NCBI RefSeq assembly: GCF_006716425.1
Contig: NZ_VFOZ01000002.1
Location: forward strand, 1 to 64,000
Direction of reading: 5' to 3'
Length of the DNA: 64,000 nt
DNA from: Actinoallomurus bryophytorum
GTDB lineage: Bacteria > Actinomycetota > Actinomycetes > Streptosporangiales > Streptosporangiaceae
Positions 20,795-56,175 of this stretch are shown here, piece after piece. Both the position numbers and the translations under genes were made by a program. The notes under the pieces were generated by a model. That model did no database searches. It saw nothing but the letters and a program-made list of their open reading frames with translations, and had not been told where the DNA came from. Within the stretch, counting starts at the first letter, position 1, and every line of letters starts with the position of its first letter.

Positions 20795-20839
20795 TAACGA
20801 GACAATCCTGTCTTGTTACGAGATGATATCGTCTTGTTA
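20795..20839. promoter_or_regulatory. Two stacked operators and -10 box of the tetR operon
   Basis: TAACGAGACA/TGTCTTGTTA (20795-20818) is a near-perfect dyad with a four-base centre. A related 24-base copy, with more mismatches, occupies 20816-20839, a shift of 21 bases (two helical turns), and ends on the A of the tetR ATG. TATCGT (20827-20832) is a plausible -10 box seven bases before that ATG, so the message may be leaderless and fully covered by bound repressor. Confidence 0.6.
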
Positions 20840-30818: not shown

Positions 30819-31017
30819 CCCCGGGTCCTGACCGGCCACACCCGTACGGGCCGAGCCCCGCCCCCCGCGATCCCGGTGAGTGGAACTCCGCACGCGCGGC
30901 TTTCCCGCGCTGGGTCAGGCTGTCGTTGCGCCGATCCCGCGAGGCCCGCGACTCGCCGACGCGAGCAGGGCGCGCGTCGGCGTTCAGGGCGACTCACTCC
31001 AGGCAGAGGGACCGAAG

Positions 31018-37462: not shown

Positions 37463-37514
37463 GGTCCCGGCCAGTGGGACCCGCGACCGCCTCCGGTCGT
37501 CGCGCCCGTAGCGT
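37463..37514 (+). promoter_or_regulatory. Steroid-regulon promoter of kshA (operator plus -10)
   Basis: GGTCCCG-GCCAG-TGGGACC (37463-37481) is a near-perfect dyad, followed after 27 bases by TAGCGT (37509-37514), a -10 box. Transcription should begin near 37521, about 30 bases before a small ORF that precedes kshA. The same dyad may also serve the divergent HsaA-like gene. See the other sites at 39216, 45732, 51813, 56157. Confidence 0.65.
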
Positions 37515-37550
37515 GCGAATGGCCCGGGACCGCGCCCAAAGGACGGACAC

Positions 37551-37643
37551 ATGACCACGAGCGTGAGCACCGCAGCGAGCGGAGCGGCCGGCCGAGGAAC
37601 GAGGCCGTCCGCGGAGCGAGTGAGGAGCGGGAGCGAGCAGTGA
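37551..37643 (+). CDS. Small upstream ORF coupled to kshA
   Basis: A 30-codon ORF that starts with ATG at 37551, eight bases after an AAAGGA Shine-Dalgarno, and ends with TGA at 37641-37643, overlapping the kshA GTG. Product starts MTTSVSTAASG and is Ser/Gly/Arg-rich, with nothing recognisable in it. Its place between the predicted transcription start and kshA suggests translational coupling like that at livH and kstD, but it does not share their 26-base element. Confidence 0.4.
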   Translation: MTTSVSTAASGAAGRGTRPSAERVRSGSEQ

Positions 37644-38794
37644 GCACAGCCCCCGAGAGCGGAGTCCGCGCGATCGAGGCCGTGGCGGCGCCGACACGTT
37701 TCGCCCGTGGATGGCACTGCCTTGGCCTGGCCGAGAAGTTCCGCGACGGAAAGCCGCACTCCATCCAGGCGTTCGGACAGAAGCTCGTGATCTTCCAGGG
37801 CGGCGACGGGAAGCTCAACGTCCTGGACGCGTACTGCCGTCACATGGGCGGCGACCTGTCCCAGGGCTCCATCAAGGGCAACGAGATCGCCTGCCCGTTC
37901 CACGACTGGCGCTGGGGCGGCGACGGGCGGTGCAAGCAGATCCCGTACGCGCGCCGGGTCCCGCTGAGGGCGCGCACCTCGGCCTGGCCCACCCTCGACC
38001 AGGACGGCATGCTGTTCGTCTGGAACGACCCTGAGGGGAACCCTCCACGCGAGGAGGAGGCGCTGCCGAGGATCGAGGGCGCGCTGGACGACGAGTGGAC
38101 CGACTGGCTCTGGTACGAGACCCTCGTCGAGACGAATGTGCGCGAGGTGGTCGACAACAACGCCGACATGGCGCACTTCTTCTACGTGCACCTCAGCTTC
38201 CCGACGTACTTCAAGAACATCTTCGAGGGCCATGTCGCGGCCCAGTACATGAACGGGAAGGCACGGGAGGACGCACGCCCCCGCCTTCCCGAGGGCAGCC
38301 CGACGATGCTCGGCAACACGTCGGTGGCCGCCTACTACGGCCCGTCGTTCATGATCGACGAGTTGACGTACAACTACGACACCATGGACGTGCGTACGAC
38401 GCTGATCAACTGCCACTACCCGATCGACGAGAACTCCTTCGTGCTGCAGTACGGCATCATCGTGAAGAAGCAGGACGGCCTCGACGAGAAGGCCGCCATG
38501 GAGGTCGCGGGCACCCAGGCGTCCTACGTCAAGAAGGGCTTCGAGCAGGACGTCCAGATCTGGAAGAACAAGGCCCGCATCGACAACCCGCTGCTGTGCG
38601 AGGAGGACGGCCCGGTCTACCAGCTGCGGCGGTGGTACGAGCAGTTCTACGTCGACGTCGCCGACATCGAGCCCGAGATGGTCGAACGCTTCGAGTACGA
38701 GCTCGACACCACCAAGCCGAACGAGATGTGGGAGAAGCAGGTGCAGGACAACCTCGCCGCGAAGGCGGCCAGGCGCAGGGCACCGGTCGCGTGA
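37640..38794 (+). CDS. kshA: 3-ketosteroid 9-alpha-hydroxylase oxygenase KshA
   Basis: A 384-residue Rieske oxygenase. The Rieske cluster ligands are C66, H68, C85 and H88 (YCRHMGG, ACPFHDW). The mononuclear iron site includes H179 and H184 in NNADMAHFFYVH. With reductase KshB it hydroxylates the steroid at C9, which with KstD opens ring B. Length matches KshA proteins. GTG at 37640 overlaps the small upstream ORF; the next gene overlaps its stop by four bases. A regulon operator and -10 box precede the transcript. Confidence 0.95.
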   Translation: MSTAPESGVRAIEAVAAPTRFARGWHCLGLAEKFRDGKPHSIQAFGQKLVIFQGGDGKLNVLDAYCRHMGGDLSQGSIKGNEIACPFHDWRWGGDGRCKQIPYARRVPLRARTSAWPTLDQDGMLFVWNDPEGNPPREEEALPRIEGALDDEWTDWLWYETLVETNVREVVDNNADMAHFFYVHLSFPTYFKNIFEGHVAAQYMNGKAREDARPRLPEGSPTMLGNTSVAAYYGPSFMIDELTYNYDTMDVRTTLINCHYPIDENSFVLQYGIIVKKQDGLDEKAAMEVAGTQASYVKKGFEQDVQIWKNKARIDNPLLCEEDGPVYQLRRWYEQFYVDVADIEPEMVERFEYELDTTKPNEMWEKQVQDNLAAKAARRRAPVA

Positions 38795-39132
38795 TCCACA
38801 CCGACAACCGGCTCGCCGACCTGCCGATGACCCCGGTGGAGTGCCAGCGGTGTCATGCCACGGTTCAGGTCCGCAAGTCCAGCTGGCAGCAGACCAGCGT
38901 CCAGTGGGACGAGGCGGGCGCCCGTACGTGCCCGGAGCGGCGCCCGTCCCTGATCGCCGGGGGCATCCGCGAGGCGGACTTCTTCACCTGCGCCGGACTG
39001 CGCGAGTCGATCGCCCAGGCGGCCATGTCGGGGACGATCCCCATGGCCGAGGAGACGTTCGAGGACTCGGCGCCACGCGACGGCCGCGGCCCGGCAGGCG
39101 CGGCGGCCGAAGAGGCCGCCGTCTCCCAGTGA
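38791..39132 (+). CDS. Small CxxC protein coupled to kshA
   Basis: A 113-residue protein with GTG start overlapping the kshA stop (GTGA). It contains VECQRCHATVQVRKSSWQQTSVQW, then a second Cys in RTCPERRP and a third in FFTCAGLRESI, a pattern of a small zinc or iron-sulfur-like knuckle, and an acidic C-terminus. I do not recognise the family name; similar short proteins occur beside kshA in other actinomycetes to my recollection. It could be an electron-transfer or assembly partner of the Rieske oxygenase. The acidic end supports a protein-protein role. Confidence 0.6.
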   Translation: MIHTDNRLADLPMTPVECQRCHATVQVRKSSWQQTSVQWDEAGARTCPERRPSLIAGGIREADFFTCAGLRESIAQAAMSGTIPMAEETFEDSAPRDGRGPAGAAAEEAAVSQ

Positions 39133-39154
39133 GTCACCGCCGGCCGCGCACGCC

Positions 39155-39173
39155 GATCCCGCCCAGCGAGATC
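39155..39173. promoter_or_regulatory. Second steroid-regulon dyad near hsaB
   Basis: GATCCCG-CCCAG-CGAGATC matches the regulon dyad GGTCYCG-N5-CGGGAYC in the reverse orientation. Its centre is 61 bases from that of the hsaB site, about six helical turns, so two dimers could bind on one face. No minus-strand gene starts near it. Confidence 0.5.
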
Positions 39174-39215
39174 CCGCCCCGGGGCGGAGCGGGCGTCCTG
39201 CTCCGCCCGGAGAAG

Positions 39216-39267
39216 GGTTTCGCTGGGCGGGATGAGATCGGTCCGCCCGTGGCCGTGCGCCTACCGT
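39216..39267 (+). promoter_or_regulatory. Steroid-regulon promoter of hsaB (operator plus -10)
   Basis: GGTTTCG-CTGGG-CGGGATG (39216-39234) is followed after 27 bases by TACCGT (39262-39267). The start point should be near 39274, within a tandem 13-base repeat, about 55 bases before the hsaB ATG. Confidence 0.65.
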
Positions 39268-39270
39268 GCT

Positions 39271-39296
39271 CACAGGAGAGTTGCACAGGAGAGTTG
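39271..39296 (+). repeat. Tandem 13-base duplication in the hsaB leader
   Basis: CACAGGAGAGTTG occurs twice in perfect tandem (39271-39283, 39284-39296) just downstream of the predicted -10 box. Each copy holds an AGGAG, which resembles a Shine-Dalgarno but is 35-50 bases from the hsaB start. Confidence 0.6.
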
Positions 39297-39329
39297 CTCC
39301 GTGGACGACGACGGTGACCGAGGTGCGGG

Positions 39330-39899
39330 ATGGACGTCACGACGACTTCACCGAAAGCGGATGCCGGTCATCCGGGACCCTCCCCCCAGGAGATGCGCCG
39401 CGCCATGGGCACCTTCGCCAGCGGCGTCACCATCGTCACCGGCCTGGACGACGGCGAACCCGTCGGCTTCGCCTGCCAGTCGTTCGCGAGCGTGTCCCTC
39501 GAACCACCCCTCGTCCTCTTCTGCGCCGACCACCGGGGCCGTACGTGGCCGCGGATCCGCGAGTCGGGCCGGTTCACCGTCAGTGTCCTGGCGGAGCGGC
39601 AGGACGAGGTCTGTGCCCGGTTCGGATCCGGTACCGGCCGCAAGTTCGACGGGCTCACCTGGCACGAGTCGCCGTGGGGTACGCCGGTCATCGACGGTGT
39701 CCTGCTCCGCGTGCACTGCGCCGTCCACCAGGTGCACGTCGCCGGCGACCACGACGTGGTGATCGGCAGGGTCCTCGCCATCGACGTGCCCGACGATGAC
39801 GACCGTCCGATGATCTTCTTCCGTGGCAGGTTCGGGATCGGGACCGACGAGCCCGTCCCGGCGCCCCAGCTGTGGGGCTGGGGCGACCACTGGGGCTGA
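39330..39899 (+). CDS. hsaB: Flavin reductase HsaB
   Basis: A 189-residue flavin reductase of the HpaC-like split-barrel family (MRRAMGTFASGVTIVTGLDDGEPVGFACQSFASVSLEPPLVLFC, HVAGDHDVVIGRVLAIDV). It supplies reduced flavin to the HsaA monooxygenase, which hydroxylates 3-HSA to the catechol 3,4-DHSA. ATG at 39330 has a GAGG-type Shine-Dalgarno. It has its own regulon promoter and faces the hsd/hsaC operon convergently. Confidence 0.9.
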   Translation: MDVTTTSPKADAGHPGPSPQEMRRAMGTFASGVTIVTGLDDGEPVGFACQSFASVSLEPPLVLFCADHRGRTWPRIRESGRFTVSVLAERQDEVCARFGSGTGRKFDGLTWHESPWGTPVIDGVLLRVHCAVHQVHVAGDHDVVIGRVLAIDVPDDDDRPMIFFRGRFGIGTDEPVPAPQLWGWGDHWG

Positions 39900-39930
39900 C
39901 CTCGCGTCTCAGGACCGAGGGCTCCCGGTG

Positions 39931-40719
39931 TCAGAAGGCGTCCTCTCCGCGAAGGGTCGCGTCCGCGCCGCCGTCGACGAAGACCACCTGTCCGGTCACA
40001 TGGGTGTTCTCCGGGCCGACCAGCCAGATCAGCGTGTGCGCGACCGCCTCCGGCGGAGCGTGCCCGTTCAGCGGCATCGGTACGGCCCGATCCGCCAACT
40101 CCCGGCCCTCCTCCGTAGCGAGAAGGGATTCGGTCATCGGGGTGACGACGACGCCGGGAGCGACGGCGTTCAGGGGGATCCCCGTACCGGCCCAGCCGGG
40201 GGTGAGGCACGTACGGCGTACCCACCGGGCCAGGGCCAGCTTCGAGGACCCGTAGAGCCGGTACCCGTGCCCGTCGGCGGACACCTTGGCGGCGAGCGCC
40301 ACGGCCCGTTCCTCGTCCCATTCGGCACAGGCCGCGACCACCGCCGCGTCGGTCACCTGGATCGAGGCGATCGAGGAGATCACCGCGGCGCGCGGCAGGT
40401 CCGCACGTGCGAGGGCGGGCCTCAGCGCGTCGAGCAGGTCGACCACGCCGAAGTAGTTGACCGTGATGGTCGCCTCCGTCGGCGCCGCCGTTCCCGCGCA
40501 GGCCACGACCGCGTCCACGACACCGCCGGTCCGCCGCAGCACGGCGTCGGCCGCGGCGCGCCTGCCCTCGGGCGCGGACAGGTCCGCCACCACCTCGACG
40601 TCGTGCAGGTCGACGCCGATGACCTCGTCACCTCGCCGGCGGAGCAACCCGGCAACCGACGAACCGATGCCGGACGCCGCTCCCGTCACGACCACCTTAC
40701 GGCCCATCGCCGTGGTCAC
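39931..40719 (-). CDS. 3-alpha-hydroxysteroid dehydrogenase/carbonyl reductase-like SDR
   Basis: A 262-residue short-chain dehydrogenase. It has TGAASGIGSSV (NAD site, residues 12-22), the short VVACAGT strand, ISSIASI and catalytic YGSSK, and the ending FVDGGADATLRGEDAF. Layout closely resembles the Comamonas 3-alpha-hydroxysteroid dehydrogenase/carbonyl reductase, including the missing NNAG-type loop. It would oxidise the steroid 3-hydroxyl to a 3-ketone that KstD and Ksh need. GTG start overlaps hsaC by four bases; it is the last gene of the kstD operon. Confidence 0.83.
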   Translation of the reverse strand: MTTAMGRKVVVTGAASGIGSSVAGLLRRRGDEVIGVDLHDVEVVADLSAPEGRRAAADAVLRRTGGVVDAVVACAGTAAPTEATITVNYFGVVDLLDALRPALARADLPRAAVISSIASIQVTDAAVVAACAEWDEERAVALAAKVSADGHGYRLYGSSKLALARWVRRTCLTPGWAGTGIPLNAVAPGVVVTPMTESLLATEEGRELADRAVPMPLNGHAPPEAVAHTLIWLVGPENTHVTGQVVFVDGGADATLRGEDAF

Positions 40720-41639: not shown

Positions 41640-41661
41640 TGCATCGCTCTTTCCGTAGGGG

Positions 41662-42846: not shown

Positions 42847-42873
42847 GTTCGCCTGTCCGTCTCTACTGGGCCT

Positions 42874-43905: not shown

Positions 43906-43923
43906 CGTGGCCTCCCGGCGTAC

Positions 43924-45621
43924 CTAGGCGGTCGGCCCGGCGGCGCCGACGCTCCCGGCCGGCGCCCCTGCCCGCTGGGCGACGTGCCGGGCCGCGATGT
44001 AGCCGAACACGATGGAGGGGCCGATCGTGCCGCCGGGCCCCGGGTACTCGTTGCCCATGACCGAGGCGGAGGTGTTGCCGGTCGCGTACAGACCCTCGAT
44101 GACCGAGCCGTCCGCGCGCAGCACGCGAGAGTTCTCGTCGCACACCAGGCCGCCCTTGGTGCCCAGGTCTCCGGCCTCCACCCGGATCGCGTAGAACGGG
44201 CCCTCCTCGATCACGTCCAGCGTGGGGTTCGGCAGGGTCGGGTCACCGTAGTAGCGGTCGTAGGCGCTCTCGCCGCGGCCGAAGTCGGTGTCCTTCCCCG
44301 CGCGGGCGAACCCGTTGAAACGCTCGACGGTCGCCGTCAGCGCGCCGGCGGGCACCCCGATGCCGTCGGCGAGCTCGGCGAGCGTACCGGCCTTGTGTAT
44401 CGTGCCCGCGTCGTAGAAGGACTTGGAGAACTCGGCTCCCGGCAGCACCTGGGCGAAGGGGTAGCGCGCACGTGCCTTGGCGTCCATCACGAACCAGACC
44501 GGGACGTGCCCGCCCGCGAGCTGGTCGTGCACGAAGTTGACATAGGGCGCCGCCTCGTTCGTGAACCGCTCCCCGGTCCGGCCCGAGACGATCACCGACC
44601 GCGGGATCGAACGCTCCGACACCAGCGGGATCATGGCTCCCACGGGATGCCGTACCGACGGCATCCACCACGCGTCGTCCATGAGGTCGGTCGCCGCACC
44701 CGCCGCACGGCCGGCCGTGATCCCCTGGCCGGTGTTCTCCGGCGCGCCGCCGCTGTTGTCGGCCTGGCCGCCCTCGGGCAGGTACCGCCCGCGCATCTCG
44801 GCGTTGTGGTCGAACCCGCCGGTCGCGAGCAGCACGCCGCGGCGTGCGCCGATCCGCACCGGGTGGCCGTCCCGTTCGGCCACGACGCCGCCGACCACGC
44901 CCTTCTCGTCGACGACGAGCTCGGTCATGGGCGTCTCCAGCCACAGCGGGACACCCGCGTCCTTCAGGGCCAGCCGCAGCCGCGCGACGAGCGCGCGCCC
45001 GGTCGTCGCCATGTGCCGGCGCCGTACGAGGTTCGAGGAGACCCGCCACGCCGCGACGACCGTGGCCCATCGGCCGCGCCAGGTGCGCTTCGCCATCGCC
45101 AGGTCGTGGTAGTCCTTGGCCGTCACCCACAGGCCCAGCGGGCCGGCCATGCCGTTCGGCCGGAGGAACCTCTCGTCCTCCCCCAGCTTGCGGGTGTCGA
45201 AGGGCCTGGCCTCGATCGAACGCCCCTGGGCGCTTCCCCCCTCGACCTCGGGGTGGTAGTCGGCGTAGCCCCTCACCCAGAAGAACCTCATCCACGGGCT
45301 CTTCTCGAGGAACTCCATGACCGCGGGGCCGTTGTCGACGAACGCGTCGATCCGCGCGGCCGGAACCCTGCCTTCGGTGAGCAGCCGCAGATAGGTGCGG
45401 ATCGTGTCCGGGTCGTCGTCCAGTCCCCGGCGCCGCAGGGTCGGGTTGCCGGGCACCCAGACGCCGCCGCCCGAGATCCCGGTCGTGCCGCCGAACTTCC
45501 GGCCCTTCTCGATGACCAGGGTGCCGAGTCCCAGGTCCGCGGCCGTCAGGGCGGCGACCATGCCACCACCGCCGCTGCCCACGACAAGGAAGTCGACCTC
45601 GTGATCCCACTGTTCAGTCAA
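43924..45621 (-). CDS. kstD: 3-ketosteroid delta-1-dehydrogenase KstD
   Basis: A 565-residue flavoprotein. FAD binding is shown by GSGGGGMVAALTAADLG near the N-terminus; the C-terminal segment NEYPGPGGTIGPSIVFGYIAARH contains the active-site Tyr/Gly of KstD. It introduces the 1,2 double bond of 3-ketosteroids; with KshAB this opens ring B. The TTG start at 45621 has AGGAGG upstream and overlaps the stop of a 23-codon leader ORF. It leads the kstD-kshB-hsaA-hsaC-SDR operon. Confidence 0.95.
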   Translation of the reverse strand: MTEQWDHEVDFLVVGSGGGGMVAALTAADLGLGTLVIEKGRKFGGTTGISGGGVWVPGNPTLRRRGLDDDPDTIRTYLRLLTEGRVPAARIDAFVDNGPAVMEFLEKSPWMRFFWVRGYADYHPEVEGGSAQGRSIEARPFDTRKLGEDERFLRPNGMAGPLGLWVTAKDYHDLAMAKRTWRGRWATVVAAWRVSSNLVRRRHMATTGRALVARLRLALKDAGVPLWLETPMTELVVDEKGVVGGVVAERDGHPVRIGARRGVLLATGGFDHNAEMRGRYLPEGGQADNSGGAPENTGQGITAGRAAGAATDLMDDAWWMPSVRHPVGAMIPLVSERSIPRSVIVSGRTGERFTNEAAPYVNFVHDQLAGGHVPVWFVMDAKARARYPFAQVLPGAEFSKSFYDAGTIHKAGTLAELADGIGVPAGALTATVERFNGFARAGKDTDFGRGESAYDRYYGDPTLPNPTLDVIEEGPFYAIRVEAGDLGTKGGLVCDENSRVLRADGSVIEGLYATGNTSASVMGNEYPGPGGTIGPSIVFGYIAARHVAQRAGAPAGSVGAAGPTA

Positions 45622-45689
45622 GGGCCCTCCTGCGTCGGAGGTGTGACCAGGACGCTGTGCCTTCCGATTCGCTCGCTCCGCTCGCTCAT
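45618..45689 (-). CDS. Tiny leader ORF upstream of kstD
   Basis: A 23-codon ORF from ATG 45689 to TGA 45618, overlapping the kstD TTG (TTGA). Its C-terminal part contains LVTPPTQE, like the tiny ORF before livH. The predicted -10 box is only about ten bases upstream of its ATG, so the leader may be translated without a Shine-Dalgarno and open the hairpin covering the kstD Shine-Dalgarno. The peptide start, MSERSERIG, is in the same MSER style. Confidence 0.5.
   Translation of the reverse strand: MSERSERIGRHSVLVTPPTQEGP
45626..45651 (-). promoter_or_regulatory. 26-base element with Shine-Dalgarno-masking hairpin (copy 2, kstD)
   Basis: Minus-strand CCTCC-GACGCA-GGAGG, in which GGAGG is the kstD Shine-Dalgarno. 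It is identical at 25 of 26 positions to the element at 7129-7154 before livH. Confidence 0.5.
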
Positions 45690-45698
45690 GGTGCTGCC

Positions 45699-45750
45699 AC
45701 GTAACCACCGCAGGTGCGGGGCGGAGGCGGGCATCCCGATGAGCGAGACC
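45699..45750 (-). promoter_or_regulatory. Steroid-regulon promoter of the kstD operon (operator plus -10)
   Basis: On the minus strand the dyad GGTCTCG-CTCAT-CGGGATG (45750-45732) is followed after 27 bases by TTACGT (45704-45699), or after 28 by TACGTG. Start point is expected near 45692, at or just before the leader ORF ATG. The divergent HsaA-like gene may share the operator; TACGCT at 45814-45819 is its own possible -10. Confidence 0.65.
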
Positions 45751-45873
45751 CTGGGCGACGTGCGGGGCGTGCCGGTGGCGATCGGCCGCGTCGACGTGTC
45801 CACCAGGCGGGACTACGCTGAGGCTCCCCGCCCGAGGGGCGGAGGTGCCCCCGACCAACCAGAGGACTGCAGA

Positions 45874-47046: not shown

Positions 47047-47075
47047 GGGCTCACGTTGAGTGGAGGTGCACCCGG

Positions 47076-47927
47076 ATGACGCAGGAGAGTTCGGGAGGGG
47101 CCGGTGCCCCGCCGTCGATGATCGAGCGGATGACGCTGATCATGGAGGCGTTCGGCGACCGCGCCGCGCGGCTGCGCCTGGACGAGATCGCCGCCTACAC
47201 CGGGCTGCCCCGGTCGACCTCGCACCGGATCCTCGAACAGCTCGTACGCCTGGGCTGGCTGCGGCACACCCAGGACGGCTACGCGCTGGGGCAGCGCGCG
47301 CTTCAGCTCGGGGGCTCGGTGAGCAACCACGGGGAGATCCGGGCGGCCGCGGTCCCCCTGCTCGAGGAGCTCCACGCCAGGACCGGCAAGGTCGTCCATC
47401 TGGGGATCCTGGACTTCGCCGACGTGGTCTACCTCGACAAGATCGGTGGTCCGGCCGCGCCGGCACTGCCCTCACGGGTCGGCGGGCGCGCCCCCGCCCA
47501 TGCCGTCAGCCTGGGCAAGGCGATGCTCGCCTGGCTGCCGCCCGAGGAGGCCGACACCCTCTTCGACGGAGGTATGAAGGCCCGTACCCACAACACGATC
47601 ACCAACCTGGTGGTGATGCACCAGGAGCTGCGGCGCATCCGTGCCCGGCACGGCCTGGCCTTCGAGCGCGACGAGTACGTGCTGGGGATCTCGTGCGTCG
47701 GGGCGGCGGTCCGCGGGCCGGAGGGCGTCGTCGCCGGGATCTCGCTGTGCGGGGAGAGCAACACCGACCCGCTCGAACGCTACGCGCCGCTGGTGCTCGA
47801 CGTCGCCAACCGCATCTCCCTCCGGCTGTTCCCGGAGACGTCGCCCGACGACATGCCCTCGACGGTGTGGTCGGACGGGATGATGGAACGCATCCTCAGC
47901 CTGCTCGACAACGACACCTTGATGTAG
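47076..47927 (+). CDS. IclR-family transcriptional regulator
   Basis: A 283-residue IclR-type regulator: winged helix-turn-helix at about 15-75 (LRLDEIAAYTGLPRSTSHRILEQLVRLGWL), then the effector domain (EELHARTGKVVHLGILDFADVVYLDKIGG, GISCVGAAVRGPEGVVAGISLCG). IclR regulators often activate aromatic and steroid-type catabolic genes from sites upstream of the -35 box. This is the only regulator between kshA and hsaE, and the regulon dyad is centred near -50 at its promoters, so it is the best candidate to bind it. It is transcribed with the upstream HsaA-like gene. Confidence 0.9.
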   Translation: MTQESSGGAGAPPSMIERMTLIMEAFGDRAARLRLDEIAAYTGLPRSTSHRILEQLVRLGWLRHTQDGYALGQRALQLGGSVSNHGEIRAAAVPLLEELHARTGKVVHLGILDFADVVYLDKIGGPAAPALPSRVGGRAPAHAVSLGKAMLAWLPPEEADTLFDGGMKARTHNTITNLVVMHQELRRIRARHGLAFERDEYVLGISCVGAAVRGPEGVVAGISLCGESNTDPLERYAPLVLDVANRISLRLFPETSPDDMPSTVWSDGMMERILSLLDNDTLM

Positions 47928-47937
47928 CCGCCCGGAC

Positions 47938-48687: not shown

Positions 48688-48755
48688 AGCGTCACATCAC
48701 CTCGGGCTTGAGCGGCTGAACGTCGGGATCGAACGGGTGACTCTCGGTCCGCTGC

Positions 48756-50297
48756 TCATCGGCCCGCGGCCATGTCCAGCGCCGCCAGGTGGCCGAAGAC
48801 CATGCACGACCCGATCGGGTTGCCGCCGCCGGGATACGCGGTGCCGCTGACGGCCGCCATGGAGTTCCCCGCGGCGTACAGGCCCTTGATCACCTGGCCG
48901 GAGGTGTCGAGCACCCGTGCGGCCGCGTCGGTGCGCAGGCCGCCCTTGGTGCCGAGGTCGGAGAGCCCGAACGCGACGGCGTGGAACGGGCCCCGCTCGA
49001 TCGGGACCAGCGGTGAGCCGTCGGAGAACGACCGGTCGTAGGGCTCTTCGCCGCGGTGGAAGTCCTCGTCCGTGCCCGTCTCGGCGAACGCGTTGAACCT
49101 CGCCACGGTCGCGGACAGCCTCCCGGCGGGAACCCCGATCCTGTCCGCGAGCTCGCCGAGCGTGCCGGCGCTGACCCACAGGCCCGCGTCCTCGTAGTCA
49201 CGGGTCTCCCCCAGCGGCACGCTGGTCGAGCGGACCGGCGGGCGTACGCCCTCGCGGTCGTCGTAGACCATCCAGAACGGCAGGGTCACCCGGCCCTCGT
49301 CCATGCGCTCGATGACCACCCGGCCGATCCGGTCGTAGGCCCAGGACTCGTTGACGAACCGCTCCCCCTGGTCGTCGACGAAGATCCCGCCGGTGAACCA
49401 CAGGGAGAAGGTCGACCTGCCGTCCGGGTGGGTGATGCCCGGCGACCACCATGCCTCCGACATCAGGTCGGTGCTCGCACCTGCGTCGATCCCGGCCTGG
49501 ATCGCCCTGCCGAGGTTCCCGGCCGGGCCCATCGCGTCCTTGACCTCGCCGGGGACGCCGTACCGTGCCCGCATCTCCGCGTTGCGCTCGAATCCGCCGG
49601 AGGCCACGAGCACGCCGCGCCGGGTCCGGATGCGGTACCTCCGGCCATGCCCGGCGACCACGGCGCCGACGACGGTGTCGCCCTCACGGATCAGTCCGTC
49701 GCAGGCCGTCTCGGTCCGAAGTTCGACCGACTCGCGTTTCGACAGCGCCATCAGGAACCGGCCGATGAGCGCCTGGCCTCCGTGGACGAGGTCGGGCAGC
49801 GGCCGCCCGGCGCGGTCGGTGCCCAGGGGTGGCCGTACCAGGTCGCGGAGCGAGCCGAGCTGCTCGGGCTTCAGCGGCATCGGCATGATGTGCCGCCCGG
49901 TGGCGCTCGCCTTCGGCGCGGACCCGAAGTAGTCGGGCCACGGATAGACCATGAACGCGAAGTCGGCGTCGCTCTCGAGGTAGTCGACGAGCGGGGCGCC
50001 GTTGTCGATGAACGCGTCCTGCAGGTCCCGTGGCGTACGGTCGCCCACGACGGCCCGGTAGTACGTCCTGGCGTCCTCGAGGGTGTCGGTGTCACCGGCT
50101 CGCCGGAGCGCCGCGTTGCACGGGAACCACAGGCCGCCGCCGGAGTAGGCGGTCGTGCCGCCGAACCGGTCCGTCGCCTCGACGACGATCACCGAGAGCC
50201 CCTCACGGGCGGCGGTGTAGGCGCCGGTCAGCGCCCCGCCGCCGGAGCCGGCGACGAGTACGTCGCACTCCTCGTCCCAGGTCTGATCCGGCGTCAT
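48756..50297 (-). CDS. Second 3-ketosteroid delta-1-dehydrogenase-like flavoprotein
   Basis: A 513-residue FAD-dependent dehydrogenase of the KstD family (VLVAGSGGGALTGAYTAAREGLSV; C-terminal TAYPGGGNPIGSCMVFGHLAALD). It is shorter than the KstD at 43924 and differs in the substrate-domain loops, as KstD paralogues (KstD2/KstD3 or delta-4 enzymes) do. It could prefer 5-alpha- or 9-hydroxy-ketosteroids. It leads a two-gene unit with the SDR at 47938 and is divergent from a SnoaL-like gene across a shared regulon dyad. Confidence 0.87.
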   Translation of the reverse strand: MTPDQTWDEECDVLVAGSGGGALTGAYTAAREGLSVIVVEATDRFGGTTAYSGGGLWFPCNAALRRAGDTDTLEDARTYYRAVVGDRTPRDLQDAFIDNGAPLVDYLESDADFAFMVYPWPDYFGSAPKASATGRHIMPMPLKPEQLGSLRDLVRPPLGTDRAGRPLPDLVHGGQALIGRFLMALSKRESVELRTETACDGLIREGDTVVGAVVAGHGRRYRIRTRRGVLVASGGFERNAEMRARYGVPGEVKDAMGPAGNLGRAIQAGIDAGASTDLMSEAWWSPGITHPDGRSTFSLWFTGGIFVDDQGERFVNESWAYDRIGRVVIERMDEGRVTLPFWMVYDDREGVRPPVRSTSVPLGETRDYEDAGLWVSAGTLGELADRIGVPAGRLSATVARFNAFAETGTDEDFHRGEEPYDRSFSDGSPLVPIERGPFHAVAFGLSDLGTKGGLRTDAAARVLDTSGQVIKGLYAAGNSMAAVSGTAYPGGGNPIGSCMVFGHLAALDMAAGR

Positions 50298-50362
50298 TCG
50301 GTCTCCCGGGCGTCCGGCGTCATGGCGACATGCTCGACGTCACCTGGGCACCCGTGTTGCCC

Positions 50363-50381
50363 GGTCCCACTCAACAGGACC
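50363..50381. promoter_or_regulatory. Steroid-regulon dyad between kstD-like and SnoaL-like genes
   Basis: GGTCCCA-CTCAA-CAGGACC, a six-base perfect stem (CGGTCC/GGACCG with the flanks), fits the regulon dyad in this divergent region. The -10 boxes at 27-28 bases are weaker: GAGCAT on the minus side and CATGCT on the plus side. Confidence 0.5.
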
Positions 50382-50463
50382 GTGGTCTCCTCCCGCGGCC
50401 ACCCCGCCCCATGCTTTCCCCATCGCGCCGCCGCCGGGTGGCGCGGCCGGTGAAGGAGGCTCG

Positions 50464-50880
50464 GTGCTGGACACGCGACGGCTCTCGGACCGGATCGAGA
50501 TCGCCGACCTGCTCACGACCTACACCAGGGCGGTCGACACGGGCGAGTGGGACCTGCTCGACACGGTCTTCACCCCGGACGCCCGGATCGACTACACGGC
50601 GACCGGCGGCATCCAGGGCGCGTTCCCCGAGGTGAAGGCCTGGCTGGCGGAGGTGCTGCCGAGCTTCGCCCGGCGCCAGCACCTCCTGTGCCAGTCGGCG
50701 GTCGTCCTCGACGGTGACGCCGCGACGGTGACCGTGTACTTCGCGAACCCGATGGTCACGGTGCGCGGCGACGTCGAGCACCTGTTCGCGTGCGGCGGTT
50801 ACTACCACCACGACCTCGTACGCACGCCCGCGGGCTGGCGGTCCCGGCGGGTGACCCAGGAGCTGGTGTGGACCCGGTGA
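50464..50880 (+). CDS. SnoaL-like/NTF2-fold protein
   Basis: A 138-residue protein of the NTF2-like superfamily (SnoaL_4 type), opening RLSDRIEIADLLTTYTRAVDTGEWDLLDTVFTPDARIDYTATGG and closing TPAGWRSRRVTQELVWTR. The fold includes ketosteroid isomerases and dehydratases, so it may isomerise or hydrate a steroid intermediate. Active-site residues of ketosteroid isomerase are not clearly conserved. It converges on hsaD. Confidence 0.83.
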   Translation: MLDTRRLSDRIEIADLLTTYTRAVDTGEWDLLDTVFTPDARIDYTATGGIQGAFPEVKAWLAEVLPSFARRQHLLCQSAVVLDGDAATVTVYFANPMVTVRGDVEHLFACGGYYHHDLVRTPAGWRSRRVTQELVWTR

Positions 50881-50897
50881 GCCGGTGTCGTTCCGGC

Positions 50898-51743
50898 TCA
50901 CTTCCTGGTGAGGAAGGCCAGCACGGCGCTCTCCCAGGCGTCCTTCTGCTCGATCATCACCCAGTGCCCGCAGTCGGGAAAGACGTGCAGCTCCGCCTGG
51001 GGGATGGTGCGCATCGGCACGATCGCCATGTCGAGCGGGCTGACCCGGTCGTCACGGCCCCAGGTGAGGAGCGTCCTGGCCTTGATCTTGTGGAGCATCG
51101 CCCAGTACGGCGGGGTGTCCCCCGGCGGCCGGGCGTTGAGCAGCGCCCGCCCGTACATCCGGCGGGCACTGGCGAGCGTGGCGGGGTCGGTGGCCTGGCT
51201 CCAGCGCTCCTCGATCAGCTCCTCGGTGACCAGCGCGGGGTCGTGGACCATCGAGTAGAGCCACTGCACGAGCCGCTCGCGGGTGGGGTCCTCGGTGAAC
51301 TCCACCAGCAGCCTGATCCCCTCGCTCGGGCCGGGGCTGAACAGGTTACGGCCCACGCCGCCGATGGTCACCAGCCGGCGCACCCGGTCGGGCTGGGCGG
51401 CGGCGACCTGCGCGGCGACGATGCCGCCCATGGAGTTGCCGATGACGTCGGCCCGATCGAGCCCGAGCCCGTCGAGGAACCGCGTGACGGCCTCGGGCGC
51501 GGCCACCATGGGATGCCGGTCGGTCGGTTCGCTGACGCCGAAGCCGGGGAACTCCAGGACCAGGCAGCGGAACCACTCGGCGAACACCGGGAGGTTCCCG
51601 CGGAAGTTACGCCATCCCGTCACGCCGGGGCCCGAGCCGTGCAGCATCAGCAGCGGCGCGCCCTCGCCGGCCTCGTGGTAGCGCAGCACGCCCTGGTCCG
51701 TCGCCAGCTCCCGCAGGGTGGACTCGTACGTCAGTTCGGCCAT
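50898..51743 (-). CDS. hsaD: Meta-cleavage product hydrolase HsaD
   Basis: A 281-residue alpha/beta hydrolase. The oxyanion motif is LHGSGPGVTGW, the nucleophile S104 lies in GNSMGG, and the rest of the triad is Asp in WGRDDRVSPL and His in FPDCGHW. It hydrolyses DSHA, the HsaC product, to HIP-type acid and a 2-hydroxyhexadienoate that HsaE takes. ATG at 51743; a regulon promoter with TAGCGT begins its transcript about 30 bases upstream. Confidence 0.94.
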   Translation of the reverse strand: MAELTYESTLRELATDQGVLRYHEAGEGAPLLMLHGSGPGVTGWRNFRGNLPVFAEWFRCLVLEFPGFGVSEPTDRHPMVAAPEAVTRFLDGLGLDRADVIGNSMGGIVAAQVAAAQPDRVRRLVTIGGVGRNLFSPGPSEGIRLLVEFTEDPTRERLVQWLYSMVHDPALVTEELIEERWSQATDPATLASARRMYGRALLNARPPGDTPPYWAMLHKIKARTLLTWGRDDRVSPLDMAIVPMRTIPQAELHVFPDCGHWVMIEQKDAWESAVLAFLTRK

Positions 51744-51778
51744 CGTCGACCTCGGCTCGTCGCGGACGTGGTGGGGAA

Positions 51779-51831
51779 ACGCTATTCAGTGCCGGCCGCG
51801 ACCGGCCGTCCTCATCCCGATCAGCGAGACC
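51779..51831 (-). promoter_or_regulatory. Steroid-regulon promoter of hsaD (operator plus -10)
   Basis: Minus strand: GGTCTCG-CTGAT-CGGGATG (51831-51813), 28 bases, then TAGCGT (51784-51779). Start near 51772. On the plus strand the same dyad is 27 bases from GAACCT (51859-51864), seven bases before the ATG of the divergent SDR. Confidence 0.65.
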
Positions 51832-51870
51832 CTGGCCCGCGCGCCGCCGCCCACCGCCGAACCTGGCGGG

Positions 51871-52644: not shown

Positions 52645-52715
52645 AACCCGGCCGAGGCCGGGCGGAGCCATGGTGGTCCGCCCGGCCTCGGGTTCGATCG
52701 GTCAGATGGGGTTGG

Positions 52716-54884
52716 TTATGGGCAGTTGCCGATATCGCTTTCGGAGGAGGCCAGGACGACGTCGGTCCTGGCCAGGCCGAGGGCATTGACGGTGAGGTGG
52801 ACGGCGTTGACGGTCAGGCCCTTGTCGGGGCTGGTGATCGGGGTCTGCTCGTTGAGGACGAGCTTGACGACGCCGACGTTGACCGTGGTGTTGGGTGCGA
52901 TATGGGTGGGTTCTGCGATGACCACCGTGCTGCCGACCTTGAGGAAGGCGATCGTGGTGGCTCCGGTGGATCCCGTGCAGGTGGTGGTGGAGCTGGAGTT
53001 GATGGTCTCGACGGTGACCACCGGAATGCCGGTGATCCCGACAGTGGTGTCGTCGATGGAGGCGGTGGCCACCGATTTGCCGGGGAACTCGGTGGTGGCG
53101 ACCTTCGCGCACAGGGCATGCGCGCTGATCAGTCCGCTGAGGGTGGCGGTGCACGGCACCGAGGTGGTGGCGGTCGAGGTGGTGGAGATGTGGCCGGTGT
53201 CGGGGGTGGGCGCGATGTTGACGAGTGGGATGCCGGCCAGGGTGGCCTTGGCGGTCAGGCCGTAGGCACGTCCGGTCAGCCGCTGCGGTGTGACGGTGAC
53301 CTGTTCGGCGCTGCACGGTGAGGTGACGGAGTTGTTGTCGGCGTCGCCACCGTAGGTGGCGGTCCACCGGTAGGTGCCGGCCGCGCCGATGGTCACGTTG
53401 CCGGATGCGGCGGTGCCGCCGCCGGACAGCGCGTCGGTGCGGGTGGCGATCGGCGTCCCGCAGGTGGTGTCGCCGGGCCCGAACAGCTGGAACGTGACGC
53501 TACCGGTGGGATGGAATCCGCCGGAGATGGTGGCGGTGTCGGACACGACGCCGCCGGCGGGCACCGACCCCGATGGGGTGGTGGTGATGCCCGGGGTGGC
53601 CTTGACGACCACGACCTGTTCATCGCCGCACGTGGAGGTGACCGGGTTGTTGCTGTCGTCGCCGCCGTAGGAGGCCACCCAGCGGTAGGTGCCCACCCCG
53701 CCCGCGGCGACGTTCCCGGATGTGGCGGTGCCGCTGCCCGACACCGTCCCGGTACGCGTCGCGATGGGCGTCGCACAGCCGGTGTCACCGGGCCCGAACA
53801 GCTGGAACGTGACGGTGCCCGTCGGATGGAACCCGCCGGTCAGGGTCGCGGTGTCAGAGACGTTCCCGCCCGCGGGCGCCGAGTCCGATGGCGTCGTGGC
53901 GATCGACGGGGTCACCTTGGGGACGTGTTCGGTGATCGTTTCAGTGAAGCCCGGTGACAGGACACCGTTGAGCAGGAAGTCCACCTTGCAGGTCAGGGTG
54001 CCTCCCGGTACGGCGTCGGCGCCGACGGAGACGACCTCGGTGAAGGTGGCGTCATCTCCGCTGGTCACCGTCCTGCTGCCCGGTGTCAGGGACACCGACA
54101 GGTTCGGGTCGCAGTCGCGTAGCTGGTGGGTGACCGTGACCGGCAGGTTGTGCAGGGCCGCCAGGATGGTGTTGCTGACCTGCGAGGGGTTGATACCGGA
54201 GAACAGCTGTCCACCCGTGGCGTTCGTGATCGCGCTCGCTTGCCCGGTCGAGTTCAGCCCGGACAGGTCGAGCGCGAGCACGGTGATGTCGGCTGCCTGC
54301 AGGGCGCTGATCGCATTGGCCAGCGTATGGCCGTTGCTGGGGTCATGGCTGGGGGCGTCCCCGATCAGCAACACGATCCGAGAACTGTTCGGCCGGAAGT
54401 CGACCGCCCCGGACGCGACCTGGAACAGACCGTTGATGCCGTCCTCGGGGATGTCGCCGCCGCCCGACGCGGCCAGCGAGTTGAGACCGTTGGTGACGGC
54501 GGCTTGATTGGCGGTGAGGTTCTGCGCCACCCGGAACGACGTCGCGTCCACCGACACATCTCTGTACTCGGCAACCGCGAACTGCGCGTCCGGCTGCGCC
54601 GAAGCTATGTTGGACAAAATGGTGTTCGCATTGGTCTGCACGTTCGAGATGACCCCGCCCATGCTCGCCGTCGTGTCGATCAAGAACGTGATATCCGGCT
54701 TGGGCGGGATCGCCGGAGTGGACACGGTCTTGGCGATCGTCGCCGATCCGCCCCGGGCCAGGTTCAGCGTCACATCCGCCGGGGTGACCCCGGGCGCGGC
54801 GGACGCCGTCCCTACCCCGGCCACCAGCATTGCGCCGGCCACCACCGCACACACGGCGGCCCGTAATCTTCGCGTCATTCTCAC
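52716..54884 (-). CDS. Secreted VWA protein with Ig-like repeats and a choice-of-anchor P-type end
   Basis: A 722-residue secreted protein. Signal peptide to about residue 29 (GTASA), a VWA domain at about 60-250 with MIDAS start DTTAS (70-74), a beta-domain to 320, then two similar Ig-like repeats at about 325-428 and 430-531 (GGFHPTG-VTFQLFGPGDT-C, GTYRW-A-YGGD). The last domain (LTGRAYGLTAKATLAG to the end) resembles the choice-of-anchor P region. No sortase signal or C-terminal helix is seen. It probably binds a surface ligand. It is unrelated to steroid catabolism and divides the island. Confidence 0.85.
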   Translation of the reverse strand: MRMTRRLRAAVCAVVAGAMLVAGVGTASAAPGVTPADVTLNLARGGSATIAKTVSTPAIPPKPDITFLIDTTASMGGVISNVQTNANTILSNIASAQPDAQFAVAEYRDVSVDATSFRVAQNLTANQAAVTNGLNSLAASGGGDIPEDGINGLFQVASGAVDFRPNSSRIVLLIGDAPSHDPSNGHTLANAISALQAADITVLALDLSGLNSTGQASAITNATGGQLFSGINPSQVSNTILAALHNLPVTVTHQLRDCDPNLSVSLTPGSRTVTSGDDATFTEVVSVGADAVPGGTLTCKVDFLLNGVLSPGFTETITEHVPKVTPSIATTPSDSAPAGGNVSDTATLTGGFHPTGTVTFQLFGPGDTGCATPIATRTGTVSGSGTATSGNVAAGGVGTYRWVASYGGDDSNNPVTSTCGDEQVVVVKATPGITTTPSGSVPAGGVVSDTATISGGFHPTGSVTFQLFGPGDTTCGTPIATRTDALSGGGTAASGNVTIGAAGTYRWTATYGGDADNNSVTSPCSAEQVTVTPQRLTGRAYGLTAKATLAGIPLVNIAPTPDTGHISTTSTATTSVPCTATLSGLISAHALCAKVATTEFPGKSVATASIDDTTVGITGIPVVTVETINSSSTTTCTGSTGATTIAFLKVGSTVVIAEPTHIAPNTTVNVGVVKLVLNEQTPITSPDKGLTVNAVHLTVNALGLARTDVVLASSESDIGNCP

Positions 54885-55332
54885 AGTGTCATTCCTTCTG
54901 GCGGGGCGTTATGCCATGACGAATTCAGGGTCGCCGGCCGTACGGAATTTCCATGATTGCGCCACCCAGGACGCCCCCTCCCCCGTTTTGGGCGCGCGCG
55001 GATACCAAATGGTATTGGTTAATGACCCCCGTGGCCTTTCAGCGCCGGCCGCTGACCAACAAGGCAGATGTGGCCACGGCCATAGAGTGACCGGTCGGGG
55101 AATAGATGTAAATAGGCCCTTTACTGTGAGTTCCCGACTGACCGCAGTCGGCCACTCCCGCCGATGAGAGGCACCCGCGAGAAGCGGTCTTTGCCGATTT
55201 TAGGTATGACCGATAAAAGGAGTGACCTCAGTTCGCCGCTTCAGAAAGAGCTGCCGTTCCCGTCCTCCGGGCCGACTGAATTGCGGTTATGGGCATCGCC
55301 GCAAAGTCGGCCAACGGCCTCCCACGCCCACC
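54885..55332. other. Long intergenic region, less GC-rich
   Basis: About 450 bases between the VWA gene start and the hsaE end, with noticeably more A and T than the flanks. It should hold the VWA promoter. ATACCA/TGGTAT (55002-55015) is a perfect short palindrome about 120 bases upstream of that gene. A looser GTCGGG/CCCGAC pair lies at 55094-55138. No plausible gene was found. Confidence 0.45.
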
Positions 55333-56115
55333 TCACTTGAAGCTGAGCGAGACCGAGCCGAGTTCACTGAACGTGGCGGTGAAGGTCTGGCCGCCCGCGA
55401 CGTCGATGGCCCGGGTGCACGAGCCGGGCAGCACCACGTGCCCGGCGTGCAGGCGTACGCCGAAGGAGGCGACCTTGCGGGCCAGCCAGGCGACGGCCAC
55501 GACCGGGTCGCCGAGTACCGCGTCGGAGCGGCCGGCGACGACGAACTCCCCGTCGCGGTACAGCGTCGCGTCGATCGCGGTCAGGTCCAGGCCATCGGGC
55601 GGGACGCCGTCCCCGATCACGTAGCCGGCCGAGGACGCGTTGTCGGCGATGGTGTCGGCCAGCCTGATGCGCCAGTCGGCGATCCGGCTGTCGATGAGCT
55701 CGATCGCCGGCACGACCCGTTCGGTGGCCGCGAGGACATCGGCCTCGGTGCAGCCCTCGCCGGGCAGGTCGGCACCAAGGACGAACCCGACCTCGACCTC
55801 GACCCGCGGGTAGCAGTAGCGGCCGGCGGCCACCGGCTCGTCCGGTCGCAGGGCCATGTCGGCGAGCAGGTGACCGTAGTCGGGTTCGTGCACGCCCATC
55901 ATCTGCTGCATCGCCTTGGACGACAGCCCGACCTTGTGGCCGCGTACGACGCCGCCCGCCGCCAGCCTGCGCCGGATGTTGACGAGCTGGATCTCGTACG
56001 CGTCGACCACGTCGATGCCCGGATCGGTCTCGGTGAGCGGCGGGATCGGTGCCCGCTCCCGCTCCGCCGCCCACAGGCGGTCGGCGACCTCCGCGCGCTG
56101 TTCCTCGGTCAGCAT
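55333..56115 (-). CDS. hsaE: 2-hydroxyhexa-2,4-dienoate hydratase HsaE
   Basis: A 260-residue hydratase of the MhpD/fumarylacetoacetase-like family (VDAYEIQLVNIRRRLAAGGVVRGHKVGLSSKAMQQMMGVHEPDYGHLL, VEVEVGFVLG metal-binding Glu pair, ADNASSAGYVIG). It adds water to the dienoate from HsaD, giving the substrate of HsaF. ATG at 56115 gives MLTEEQR and lies seven bases after a TAGCGT -10 box, so the transcript appears leaderless. Other in-frame ATG upstream (56190) would include the operator in the gene. Confidence 0.92.
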   Translation of the reverse strand: MLTEEQRAEVADRLWAAERERAPIPPLTETDPGIDVVDAYEIQLVNIRRRLAAGGVVRGHKVGLSSKAMQQMMGVHEPDYGHLLADMALRPDEPVAAGRYCYPRVEVEVGFVLGADLPGEGCTEADVLAATERVVPAIELIDSRIADWRIRLADTIADNASSAGYVIGDGVPPDGLDLTAIDATLYRDGEFVVAGRSDAVLGDPVVAVAWLARKVASFGVRLHAGHVVLPGSCTRAIDVAGGQTFTATFSELGSVSLSFK

Positions 56116-56122
56116 GCCGAAG

Positions 56123-56175
56123 ACGCTACCGGCGCGTTCCCAGAGGCGACCGGCCCGGTCCCACTGGCCGGGAGC
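56123..56175 (-). promoter_or_regulatory. Steroid-regulon promoter of hsaE (operator plus -10)
   Basis: Two half-sites in GGTCCCA-CTGGC-CGGGAGC (56157-56175, plus strand), then, on the minus strand, 28 bases and TAGCGT (56128-56123). The initiation point coincides with the hsaE ATG at 56115, or one base upstream. Confidence 0.6.

What the first reader, a model, noticed from the sequence alone, without database searches (positions are those of the whole stretch)
37463..56175. A shared 19-bp dyad at fixed distance from the -10 box in five steroid-gene promoters
GGTCYCG-N5-CGGGAYC, allowing one or two changes, occurs at 37463-37481 (kshA), 39216-39234 (hsaB), 45732-45750 (kstD), 51813-51831 (hsaD) and 56157-56175 (hsaE). 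In each case a TAGCGT, TACCGT or TTACGT box begins 27 or 28 bases after it on the strand of the gene. Extra copies lie at 39155-39173 and 50363-50381. Its centre falls near -50, the position expected of an activator rather than a repressor. It is unlike the mycobacterial KstR palindrome (built on AACnnGTT). A fixed spacing on two strands and five operons is hard to explain by chance.
Basis: partly seen in the sequence, partly recalled or inferred. Interest (0 to 1): 0.85.

Follow-up and report, generated by a model that had tools for sequence, protein, structure and literature searches.

The report
Shared steroid-gene activator binding site
The repeated DNA sign in front of these steroid-breakdown genes is real, is shared by many actinobacteria at a near-fixed distance from the promoter, and is most likely where an IclR-family protein switches the pathway on; a close form of the sign was already predicted in one species, but its partner protein was left open there.

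Summary
Observation confirmed: all seven dyads exist as stated, and the five boxes begin 27 or 28 bases downstream. A matrix trained on kshA promoters of other genera puts these seven plus one missed site (30869-30887, before hsaG/hsaF) in the top eight places of the window. In 1.65 of 9.47 Mb of the genome, dyad plus box picks kshA, hsaB, hsaD, hsaE and one promoter outside the window, that of a steroid-CoA synthetase gene (casI); the next hit scores far lower. In 80 kshA loci, 68 have the dyad and 32 of the 33 with any TAnnnT box have it at 27/28. The dyad has IclR-family group-1 shape and resembles Lcin1, a palindrome predicted in Nocardioides simplex (PMC7593942) whose factor was left open. 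Best candidate: the IclR regulator at 47076-47927. Its orthologs track KshA over 157 genomes (p=1e-10), and the dyad occurs at kshA in 8 of 10 IclR-positive and 0 of 7 IclR-negative genomes. No -35 signal was detected, so activation from about -50 is likely. Binding and activation are inferred. The motif is not new; the regulator assignment, spacing rule and breadth seem to be.

The parts
37463..37481 (+). dyad GGTCCCGGCCAGTGGGACC of kshA (divergent from an HsaA gene)
   Evidence: a site >=12 bits upstream of kshA in 68 of 80 loci
37509..37514 (+). -10 box TAGCGT of kshA, 27 bases after the dyad
   Evidence: identical in L009
37640..38794 (+). kshA (start GTG; a 30-codon leader ORF from 37551 ends in the overlapping GTGA)
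   Evidence: name by relatives and context
36233..37369 (-). hsaA-type monooxygenase, divergent from kshA
   Evidence: NCBIfam HsaA 613 bits, cut-off 450
39155..39173 (.). extra dyad without box; its counterpart in L009 has TACCTT at 27 and precedes a FAD dehydrogenase gene that I did not see here: possible relic
39216..39234 (+). dyad GGTTTCGCTGGGCGGGATG of hsaB
   Evidence: conserved in L009
39262..39267 (+). -10 box TACCGT of hsaB
39330..39899 (+). hsaB (flavin reductase)
   Evidence: best model HsaB, below its cut-off
45732..45750 (-). dyad GGTCTCGCTCATCGGGATG of kstD
45699..45704 (-). weak box TTACGT of kstD
43924..45621 (-). kstD (TTG start; a 23-codon leader ORF from 45689 overlaps it by TTGA); an oxidoreductase in the KshB position, hsaA, hsaC and an SDR gene follow on this strand
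47076..47927 (+). IclR-family regulator, candidate binder of the dyad
   Evidence: Pfam HTH_IclR and IclR_C
50363..50381 (.). dyad between KstD paralog (48756-50297 -) and SnoaL gene (50464-50880 +); weak boxes GAGCAT 50330-50335(-) and CATGCT 50410-50415(+)
51813..51831 (-). dyad GGTCTCGCTGATCGGGATG of hsaD
51779..51784 (-). -10 box TAGCGT of hsaD
50898..51743 (-). hsaD
   Evidence: best model HsaD, below its cut-off
56157..56175 (-). dyad GCTCCCGGCCAGTGGGACC of hsaE
56123..56128 (-). -10 box TAGCGT of hsaE; ATG follows after 7 bases (leaderless layout)
55333..56115 (-). hsaE (hydratase)
   Evidence: HpaH/DmpE-type models, below cut-off
30869..30887 (+). newly found dyad GATCCCGGTGAGTGGAACT before hsaG/hsaF; CAGGCT box at 30916-30921 (28 bases)
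31018..33020 (+). hsaG (acetaldehyde dehydrogenase, 31018-31977) and hsaF (4-hydroxy-2-oxovalerate aldolase, 31974-33020)
   Evidence: 458.7 bits (cut-off 282) and 563.5 bits (cut-off 286)

Best explanation
The dyad, 17-mer core GTYCCGNYSAGYGGRAC, is the operator of an IclR-family transcription activator, most likely the regulator at 47076-47927 and its orthologs. Shown here: the site is conserved before kshA and other ring-degradation genes in many actinobacterial genera, usually 27-28 (in other promoters up to 31) bases before a TAnnnT -10 box, with no detectable -35, and it co-occurs with the IclR ortholog. Inferred: a dimer bound at about -50, responding to a steroid or bile-acid derived ligand, recruits or holds RNA polymerase at a promoter that lacks a -35. 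This fires kshA, kstD, hsaB, hsaD, hsaE and probably hsaG/hsaF and the steroid-CoA synthetase gene casI together.
For: Conserved site and spacing. Genome specificity, and the promoter of casI (steroid-22-oyl-CoA synthetase, 977 bits, cut-off 900) picked without knowing the gene. IclR ortholog at E<=1e-40 in 49 of 50 kshA genomes submitted; homolog within 10 kb of kshA in 29 of 80 loci, 15 of them above 45% identity. Over 157 genomes besides the window's own, 10 of 17 KshA+ versus 1 of 140 KshA- have the IclR. Dyad at kshA in 8 of 10 IclR+ and 0 of 7 IclR- genomes. In a quick tree 51 relatives including the window's protein form one set (SH-aLRT 99) apart from 13 own-genome paralogs. Their presumed recognition helix is nearly invariant. 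Dyads >=11 bits lie upstream of 18 of 30 iclR orthologs versus 1 of 14 own paralogs. Published IclR group-1 consensus GKTYCRYW3-4RYGRAMC has the same 17-bp plan (PMC8222616). No -35. PMC7593942 reports Lcin1 mainly before cluster E, which lithocholate induces.
Against: No binding or expression data for this protein. Two IclR+ genomes (G193, G136) have no dyad at kshA, and one kshA genome (G007) has no IclR at E<=1e-40 although its locus L016 has a strong dyad (23.6 bits). One KshA- genome (G150) has the IclR. Windows elsewhere in the iclR loci also often hold dyads (72 of 358), so closeness to iclR partly reflects the cluster. At least two dyad-positive genomes of the profile test (G095, G116) hold loci that trained the matrix, and KshA subfamily is a confounder. 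The dyad is asymmetric and is seen in both orientations. Many iclR promoters also hold another conserved element, so control of iclR through the dyad is not established. Only 33 of 68 kshA promoters with a dyad have a TAnnnT box within 53 bases. The authors of PMC8228715 proposed repression, not activation, for kshA1/kshA2 of R. ruber.
Confidence: 0.75

Rival explanations
1. The dyad is bound by another regulator (TetR, PadR, MarR or other) that merely travels with the cluster.
For: A PadR-like gene (family by eye) lies within 10 kb of kshA in 23 of 80 loci, the query's own included. A MarR-family and a TetR-family gene lie in the same steroid island as the IclR in P. simplex (PMC7062782, passages). 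The window has TetR genes at 20839 and 61752.
Against: That PadR is confined to Mycobacteriaceae and Nocardia loci and is not found in the 1.65 Mb of own genome held, whereas the dyad is spread over many genera. SRTF1 binds a different, 22-bp palindrome. The dyad has IclR group-1 shape, and presence of dyad and IclR coincide. I did not survey regulators other than by clustering of predicted proteins near kshA.
Confidence: 0.15
2. The IclR protein binds the dyad but acts as a repressor or dual regulator; induction comes from relief of repression.
For: The IclR family includes repressors and dual regulators (PMC8222616). Bidirectional sites in divergent regions would allow both. PMC8228715 suggested repressors for kshA1/kshA2.
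Against: The site lies wholly upstream of the -10 region, at a near-constant distance, and no -35 is detectable.
Confidence: 0.15
3. The dyad is a chance or repeat-element feature of GC-rich DNA.
For: Up to 2 mismatches the pattern occurs thousands of times in the genome; four strong boxless dyads that I inspected lie inside predicted coding sequence.
Against: Conservation before orthologous genes in many genera and the spacing peak (p 5e-45 and 9e-50); five dyad+box hits stand alone in 1.65 Mb.
Confidence: 0.01

Closest known systems
Lcin1 motif of Nocardioides simplex VKM Ac-2033D (PMC7593942; sections 20, 25 and passages read)
   Same: Palindrome TCCCGGT[C/G]ACCGGGA fits the dyad core TYCCGNYSAGYGGRA at most positions and scores 11.4-20.4 bits with the kshA matrix depending on flanks; sits before lithocholate-induced cluster E and an HsaEGF operon.
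   Different: Reported for one species; the factor was only guessed (KR76_18060, family not given in what I read); no spacing to a -10 box given in what I read. The eight window dyads differ from it at 3-5 of 15 positions.
SRTF2, IclR-family regulator of Pimelobacter simplex (PMC7062782, passages read)
   Same: Steroid-induced IclR in the steroid gene island, next to a KstD; P. simplex IclRs near kshA (L026, L033) fall in the same set as the window regulator.
   Different: The paper went on with SRTF1 and gave SRTF2 no binding motif or regulon in the passages I saw; that L026 or L033 holds SRTF2 itself was not verified.
IclR-family group-1 sites (PobR/PcaU, GenR, GTT-11-AAC; PMC8222616, sections 13, 14, 19 and passages read)
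   Same: 17-bp palindrome with TYC..GRA half-sites; GenR ATTCC-N7(5)-GGAAT and PobR/PcaU TTGTCCGATSATCGGACAR are alike in plan.
   Different: 'Steroid' does not occur in that paper's main text; the half-site CCG..YGG is particular to this group.
KstR and KstR2
   Same: Regulators of actinobacterial steroid catabolism with palindromic sites.
   Different: TetR repressors with TNNAACNNGTTNNA and AAGCAAGNNCTTGCTT type sites (after PMC8228715 and PMC5348764, passages); no such site found at these promoters.

Membership tests
IclR-family regulator (protein at 47076-47927) | N-terminal HTH_IclR and C-terminal IclR_C domains above Pfam gathering score | tested here: met
   50.3 bits (cut-off 22) and 113.5 bits (cut-off 24)
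PcaR/PcaU/PobR subfamily (TIGR02431) | score above the curated cut-off | tested here: not met
   124.4 bits against 284.75: best-scoring subfamily model, not a member
IclR group-1 operator | palindrome GKTYCRYW3-4RYGRAMC or near variant | tested here: met
   17-mer GTYCCGNYSAGYGGRAC against the consensus: same length and symmetry; agrees at most positions, not at position 7 (N for Y) or 8-9 (Y, S for W), and Y/R stands for T/A at 3/15
IclR group-1 operator | bound by an IclR-family protein | not testable with these tools
   only co-occurrence shown
Lcin1 motif | TCCCGGT[C/G]ACCGGGA before steroid or bile-acid genes | tested here: inconclusive
   same half-sites, length and gene context, but 3-5 of 15 differences at the eight window dyads; the N. 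simplex site list was not readable
KstR operator | AACnnGTT core in the promoter | tested here: not met
   6 exact cores in the window; by position none lies at a dyad or in the promoter intervals described here
Activator-dependent promoter | -10 box without a -35 element, operator at near-constant distance upstream | tested here: met
Activator-dependent promoter | transcription depends on the bound protein | not testable with these tools
   needs mutant and 5' RNA mapping

The most novel reading that the evidence does not exclude
A third, phylum-wide steroid regulon of actinobacteria besides KstR and KstR2: an IclR-family, steroid- or bile-acid-sensing activator that turns on ring degradation (kshA, kstD, hsaABCDE, also kshB and casI) from a near-fixed -50 site. 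In many genera its own gene carries a separate 22-bp palindrome that may place it under the steroid-sensing TetR repressor SRTF1, making a two-tier cascade.
Probability: 0.55. Interest if true: 0.65.

Novelty: new member of a known kind. Interest (0 to 1): 0.5.

Why it matters
Some steroid genes, such as kshA1 and kshA2 of Rhodococcus ruber, are steroid-induced without KstR sites, and their regulator was left open (PMC8228715, passages read). A named candidate protein, a scored operator and a spacing rule make that question directly testable and give a handle for strains that make steroid drugs.

Tried and rejected
Sequence-only covariance model of 20 kshA promoters (A2, R1): over the whole genome it ranked kshA first, hsaE second and the casI site fourth, with an unrelated place third (L091, best dyad 9.2 bits). 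Only 150 of 33945 candidates were scored and the GC-rich spacer added noise, so I replaced it by matrix scans. The genome-specificity claim therefore rests on 1.65 of 9.47 Mb (all of contig 2, 100 kb of contig 3, 400 kb of contig 1) plus that partial search.

Considered and rejected: the second conserved element upstream of iclR (AGAATNNATTTCAG, 22-bp form AAACTRGAATNNATTYCAGTTT) as the IclR site. It is absent from the window at up to 2 mismatches to AGAATTCATTTCAG and fits the description of the SRTF1 palindrome (PMC7062782), though that sequence is not in the text I saw. PadR as binder: wrong taxonomic range. KstR3 of M. neoaurum (PMC10398937, passages): a repressor of another operon.

The iclR-upstream count is weaker than it looks: one search prints 19 of 30 at 11.0 or more after rounding, one search counted 18; other windows in the same loci gave 72 of 358. 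In one search the stretch taken from L163 did not contain the dyad meant, so four, not five, boxless dyads were inspected. My notes first called the synthetase gene 4.6 kb beyond the window fadD3-like; the family search says CasI.

Literature: nine searches. No listing or passage I saw named an IclR regulator as binder of this motif. Supplementary tables (Acin1-3 and Lcin1 site lists) and subscription papers such as Mohn 2012 were not readable.
Full report
Setting. The window is the start of contig 2 of a 9.47-Mb genome in 3 contigs. Its KshA is 92% identical to that of an Actinoallomurus MAG (L009), so it is probably Actinoallomurus or near. The right half encodes a steroid ring-degradation cluster: KshA, two HsaA-type oxygenases, HsaB, HsaC, an oxidoreductase in the KshB position, KstD, HsaD, HsaE, HsaG, HsaF and others. 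One HsaA, HsaG and HsaF pass curated cut-offs; KstD passes one for an unnamed FAD-binding family; HsaB, HsaC, HsaD and HsaE are best or near-best matches below cut-off; KshA and KshB are named by relatives and context.

The observation. As a loose pattern the dyad is common in this GC-rich genome, so pattern counts alone prove nothing. I therefore trained a matrix on kshA promoters. In 80 kshA loci from genome contigs, 68 have a site >=12 bits in the region from 300 bases upstream to 40 inside. The consensus is TYCCG-N-Y[CG]AGYGGRAC. This is circular for dyad presence in those loci, but not for what follows. With a stricter matrix (45 sites, none from the window or L009) the window's top eight dyads are the seven listed ones (15.5-21.9 bits) and a new one, 30869-30887 (23.3), before hsaG/hsaF; the ninth scores 13.8 (the first matrix gave the same eight). 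In 1.65 Mb of own genome the stricter matrix gave 7 dyads >=16 bits in the 64-kb window against 7 in 1.587 Mb outside. Requiring a box at 27/28 left five hits between 26.9 and 31.4, then a gap to 16.0. Four are kshA, hsaE, hsaD and hsaB. The fifth, C2:68590-68608(-), box TAACGT at 27, lies 4.6 kb outside the window, directly before a gene for a steroid-22-oyl-CoA synthetase (CasI model, 977 bits, cut-off 900). kstD (TTACGT), hsaG (CAGGCT) and 50363 (GAGCAT/CATGCT) have weaker boxes. Four boxless strong dyads elsewhere lie inside predicted coding sequence; the others were not inspected.

The spacing. Of the 68 kshA promoters, 33 have a TAnnnT at any offset 0-53: 18 at 27, 14 at 28, 1 at 31 (p=5e-45). 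The other 35, many from Mycobacterium and Nocardioides, often show boxes such as TTGAAT, TAGAAC or CAGACT there. At dyads >=13 bits other than kshA's in the same loci (388 strand-specific entries), TAnnnT counts are 22, 34, 14, 8 and 6 at offsets 27-31, of 110 in all (p=9e-50 for 27/28). So the rule is firm but looser than 27/28 in other promoters. Of 93 such entries with T[AT]nnnT at 27/28, 53 lie before genes matching a labelled window gene, some only at about 30-50% identity: KstD or related FAD dehydrogenases 15, SDRs 16, hsaD 7, hsaB 6, kshB 3, fadA6-like 3, and hsaE, hsaA and iclR 1 each; 40 were unlabelled. Judged by eye from translations, those 40 include SnoaL genes in mycobacteria, KstD-like FAD proteins, acyl-CoA synthetases, acyl-CoA dehydrogenases, a MaoC-like and a Baeyer-Villiger-like protein, but also solute-binding, luciferase-like and hydrolase-like genes with no evident steroid role, and two places without an ORF. 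No -35 signal is detectable: mean best TTGACA match 2.13 of 6 against 2.20 +/- 0.07 in shuffled spacers over 86 promoters. In hsaE the ATG follows the box by 7 bases. A leaderless start there places the dyad centre at -51.

The protein. The IclR-family regulator at 47076-47927 has the two Pfam domains of the family and its best NCBIfam model is that of PcaR/PcaU/PobR, below cut-off. The own genome has 15 IclR matches, the next best at 37% identity. Orthologs occur at E<=1e-40 in 49 of 50 kshA genomes (50 of the 80 loci were submitted), and a homolog lies within 10 kb of kshA in 29 of 80 loci, 15 of them above 45% identity. In a class-wide draw of 158 genomes, KshA (E<=1e-110) is in 18 and the IclR (E<=1e-46) in 12, both in 11. 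Without the window's own genome that is 10 of 17 against 1 of 140 (p=1e-10). I then read the upstream region of all 31 kshA matches of the 17 other KshA+ genomes. The best dyad is 14.3 bits or more in 8 of 10 IclR+ genomes and at most 5.5 in the 7 IclR- genomes; p=0.0019. The exceptions are G193 and G136. Within the IclR+ genomes, 8 of 8 kshA genes with >=66% identity to the window's KshA carry a dyad >=13.6 bits and 2 of 14 with <=61% do. At least G095 and G116 look like genomes of training loci (same coordinates or contig length as G018/L027 and L064), and KshA subfamily is a confounder. In a quick tree (SH-aLRT only, long-branch warnings) the 51 relatives form one set with support 99, apart from the 13 own paralogs. 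Their presumed recognition helix is nearly invariant (LPRSTAHRILDQLVRL, window LPRSTSHRILEQLVRL); the mycobacterial branch has LPRSSAHRMLERLVQL and a slightly different dyad. Dyads >=11 bits lie upstream of 18 of 30 orthologs, against 1 of 14 own paralogs but also 72 of 358 windows elsewhere in those loci.

Mechanism. The dyad's 17-base plan is that of IclR group-1 operators (PMC8222616; sections 13, 14, 19 and passages read). Position and spacing fit an activator contacting polymerase at a -35-less promoter. Shown: sequence, conservation, spacing, co-occurrence. Inferred: binding, ligand, activation.

Known work. PMC7593942 predicted Lcin1, TCCCGGT[C/G]ACCGGGA, by footprinting in N. simplex before lithocholate-induced cluster E and an HsaEGF operon, with an unproved factor. 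It is very probably the same operator, though the window sites differ from that consensus at 3-5 of 15 positions. PMC7062782 named an IclR protein, SRTF2, in the P. simplex steroid island, induced by sterols and with an SRTF1 site upstream, but went on with SRTF1. PMC8228715 found R. ruber kshA1 and kshA2 induced without KstR sites and proposed another regulator, acting as a repressor. What I did not find in print, within the nine searches listed, is the link between motif and IclR protein, the -10 spacing rule, and its breadth from Actinomadura and Microtetraspora to Mycobacterium.

Verdict. The motif itself was in essence predicted once; the finding is a well-defined member of a known kind, with a testable regulator.

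Noticed in passing
L026:13061 and 13120, L033:21033, and iclR promoters of L013, L017, L027, L036, L045, L054, L084: A second conserved element, AAACTRGAATNNATTYCAGTTT (22-bp palindrome), lies upstream of iclR in many genera, sometimes twice. It fits the description of the SRTF1 (TetR) operator and is absent from the window at up to 2 mismatches.
   Followed up: partly
37551-37640 and 45621-45689: kshA and kstD each have a short leader ORF (30 and 23 codons) after the promoter whose TGA stop overlaps the gene's start codon (GTGA, TTGA). In L009 kshA starts directly at the first ATG. The kstD leader begins with the repeat-like GAGCGAGCGGAGCGAGC.
   Followed up: partly
39155-39173: Boxless dyad; in L009 the counterpart (6961, - strand) has TACCTT at 27 and a 492-aa FAD dehydrogenase 39 bases on. 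The window may have lost the gene and kept the operator.
   Followed up: partly
C2:68590-68608 and L119:6891-8546(-), outside the window: casI (steroid-22-oyl-CoA synthetase) with dyad and TAACGT box; together with the absence of KstR sites at these promoters this suggests a bile-acid (cholate) type steroid cluster.
   Followed up: partly
L032, L037, L039-L042, L044, L046 and other mycobacterial loci, a few kb upstream of kshA: A PadR-like gene is conserved near kshA in Mycobacteriaceae and Nocardia only (23 loci).
   Followed up: no
mycobacterial loci such as L039:17414(-), L041:17415(-), L087:16154(-): A dyad lies 28 bases before TTGACT, in L039 and L041 with a start codon about 7 bases later, before a SnoaL-like gene: a leaderless layout. 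The window's 50363 dyad also neighbours a SnoaL gene.
   Followed up: partly
literature: The name KstR3 is used in PMC10398937 for a repressor in M. neoaurum and in PMC7593942 (citing Mohn 2012) for cholate-cluster regulators; I could not tell whether these are related.
   Followed up: no
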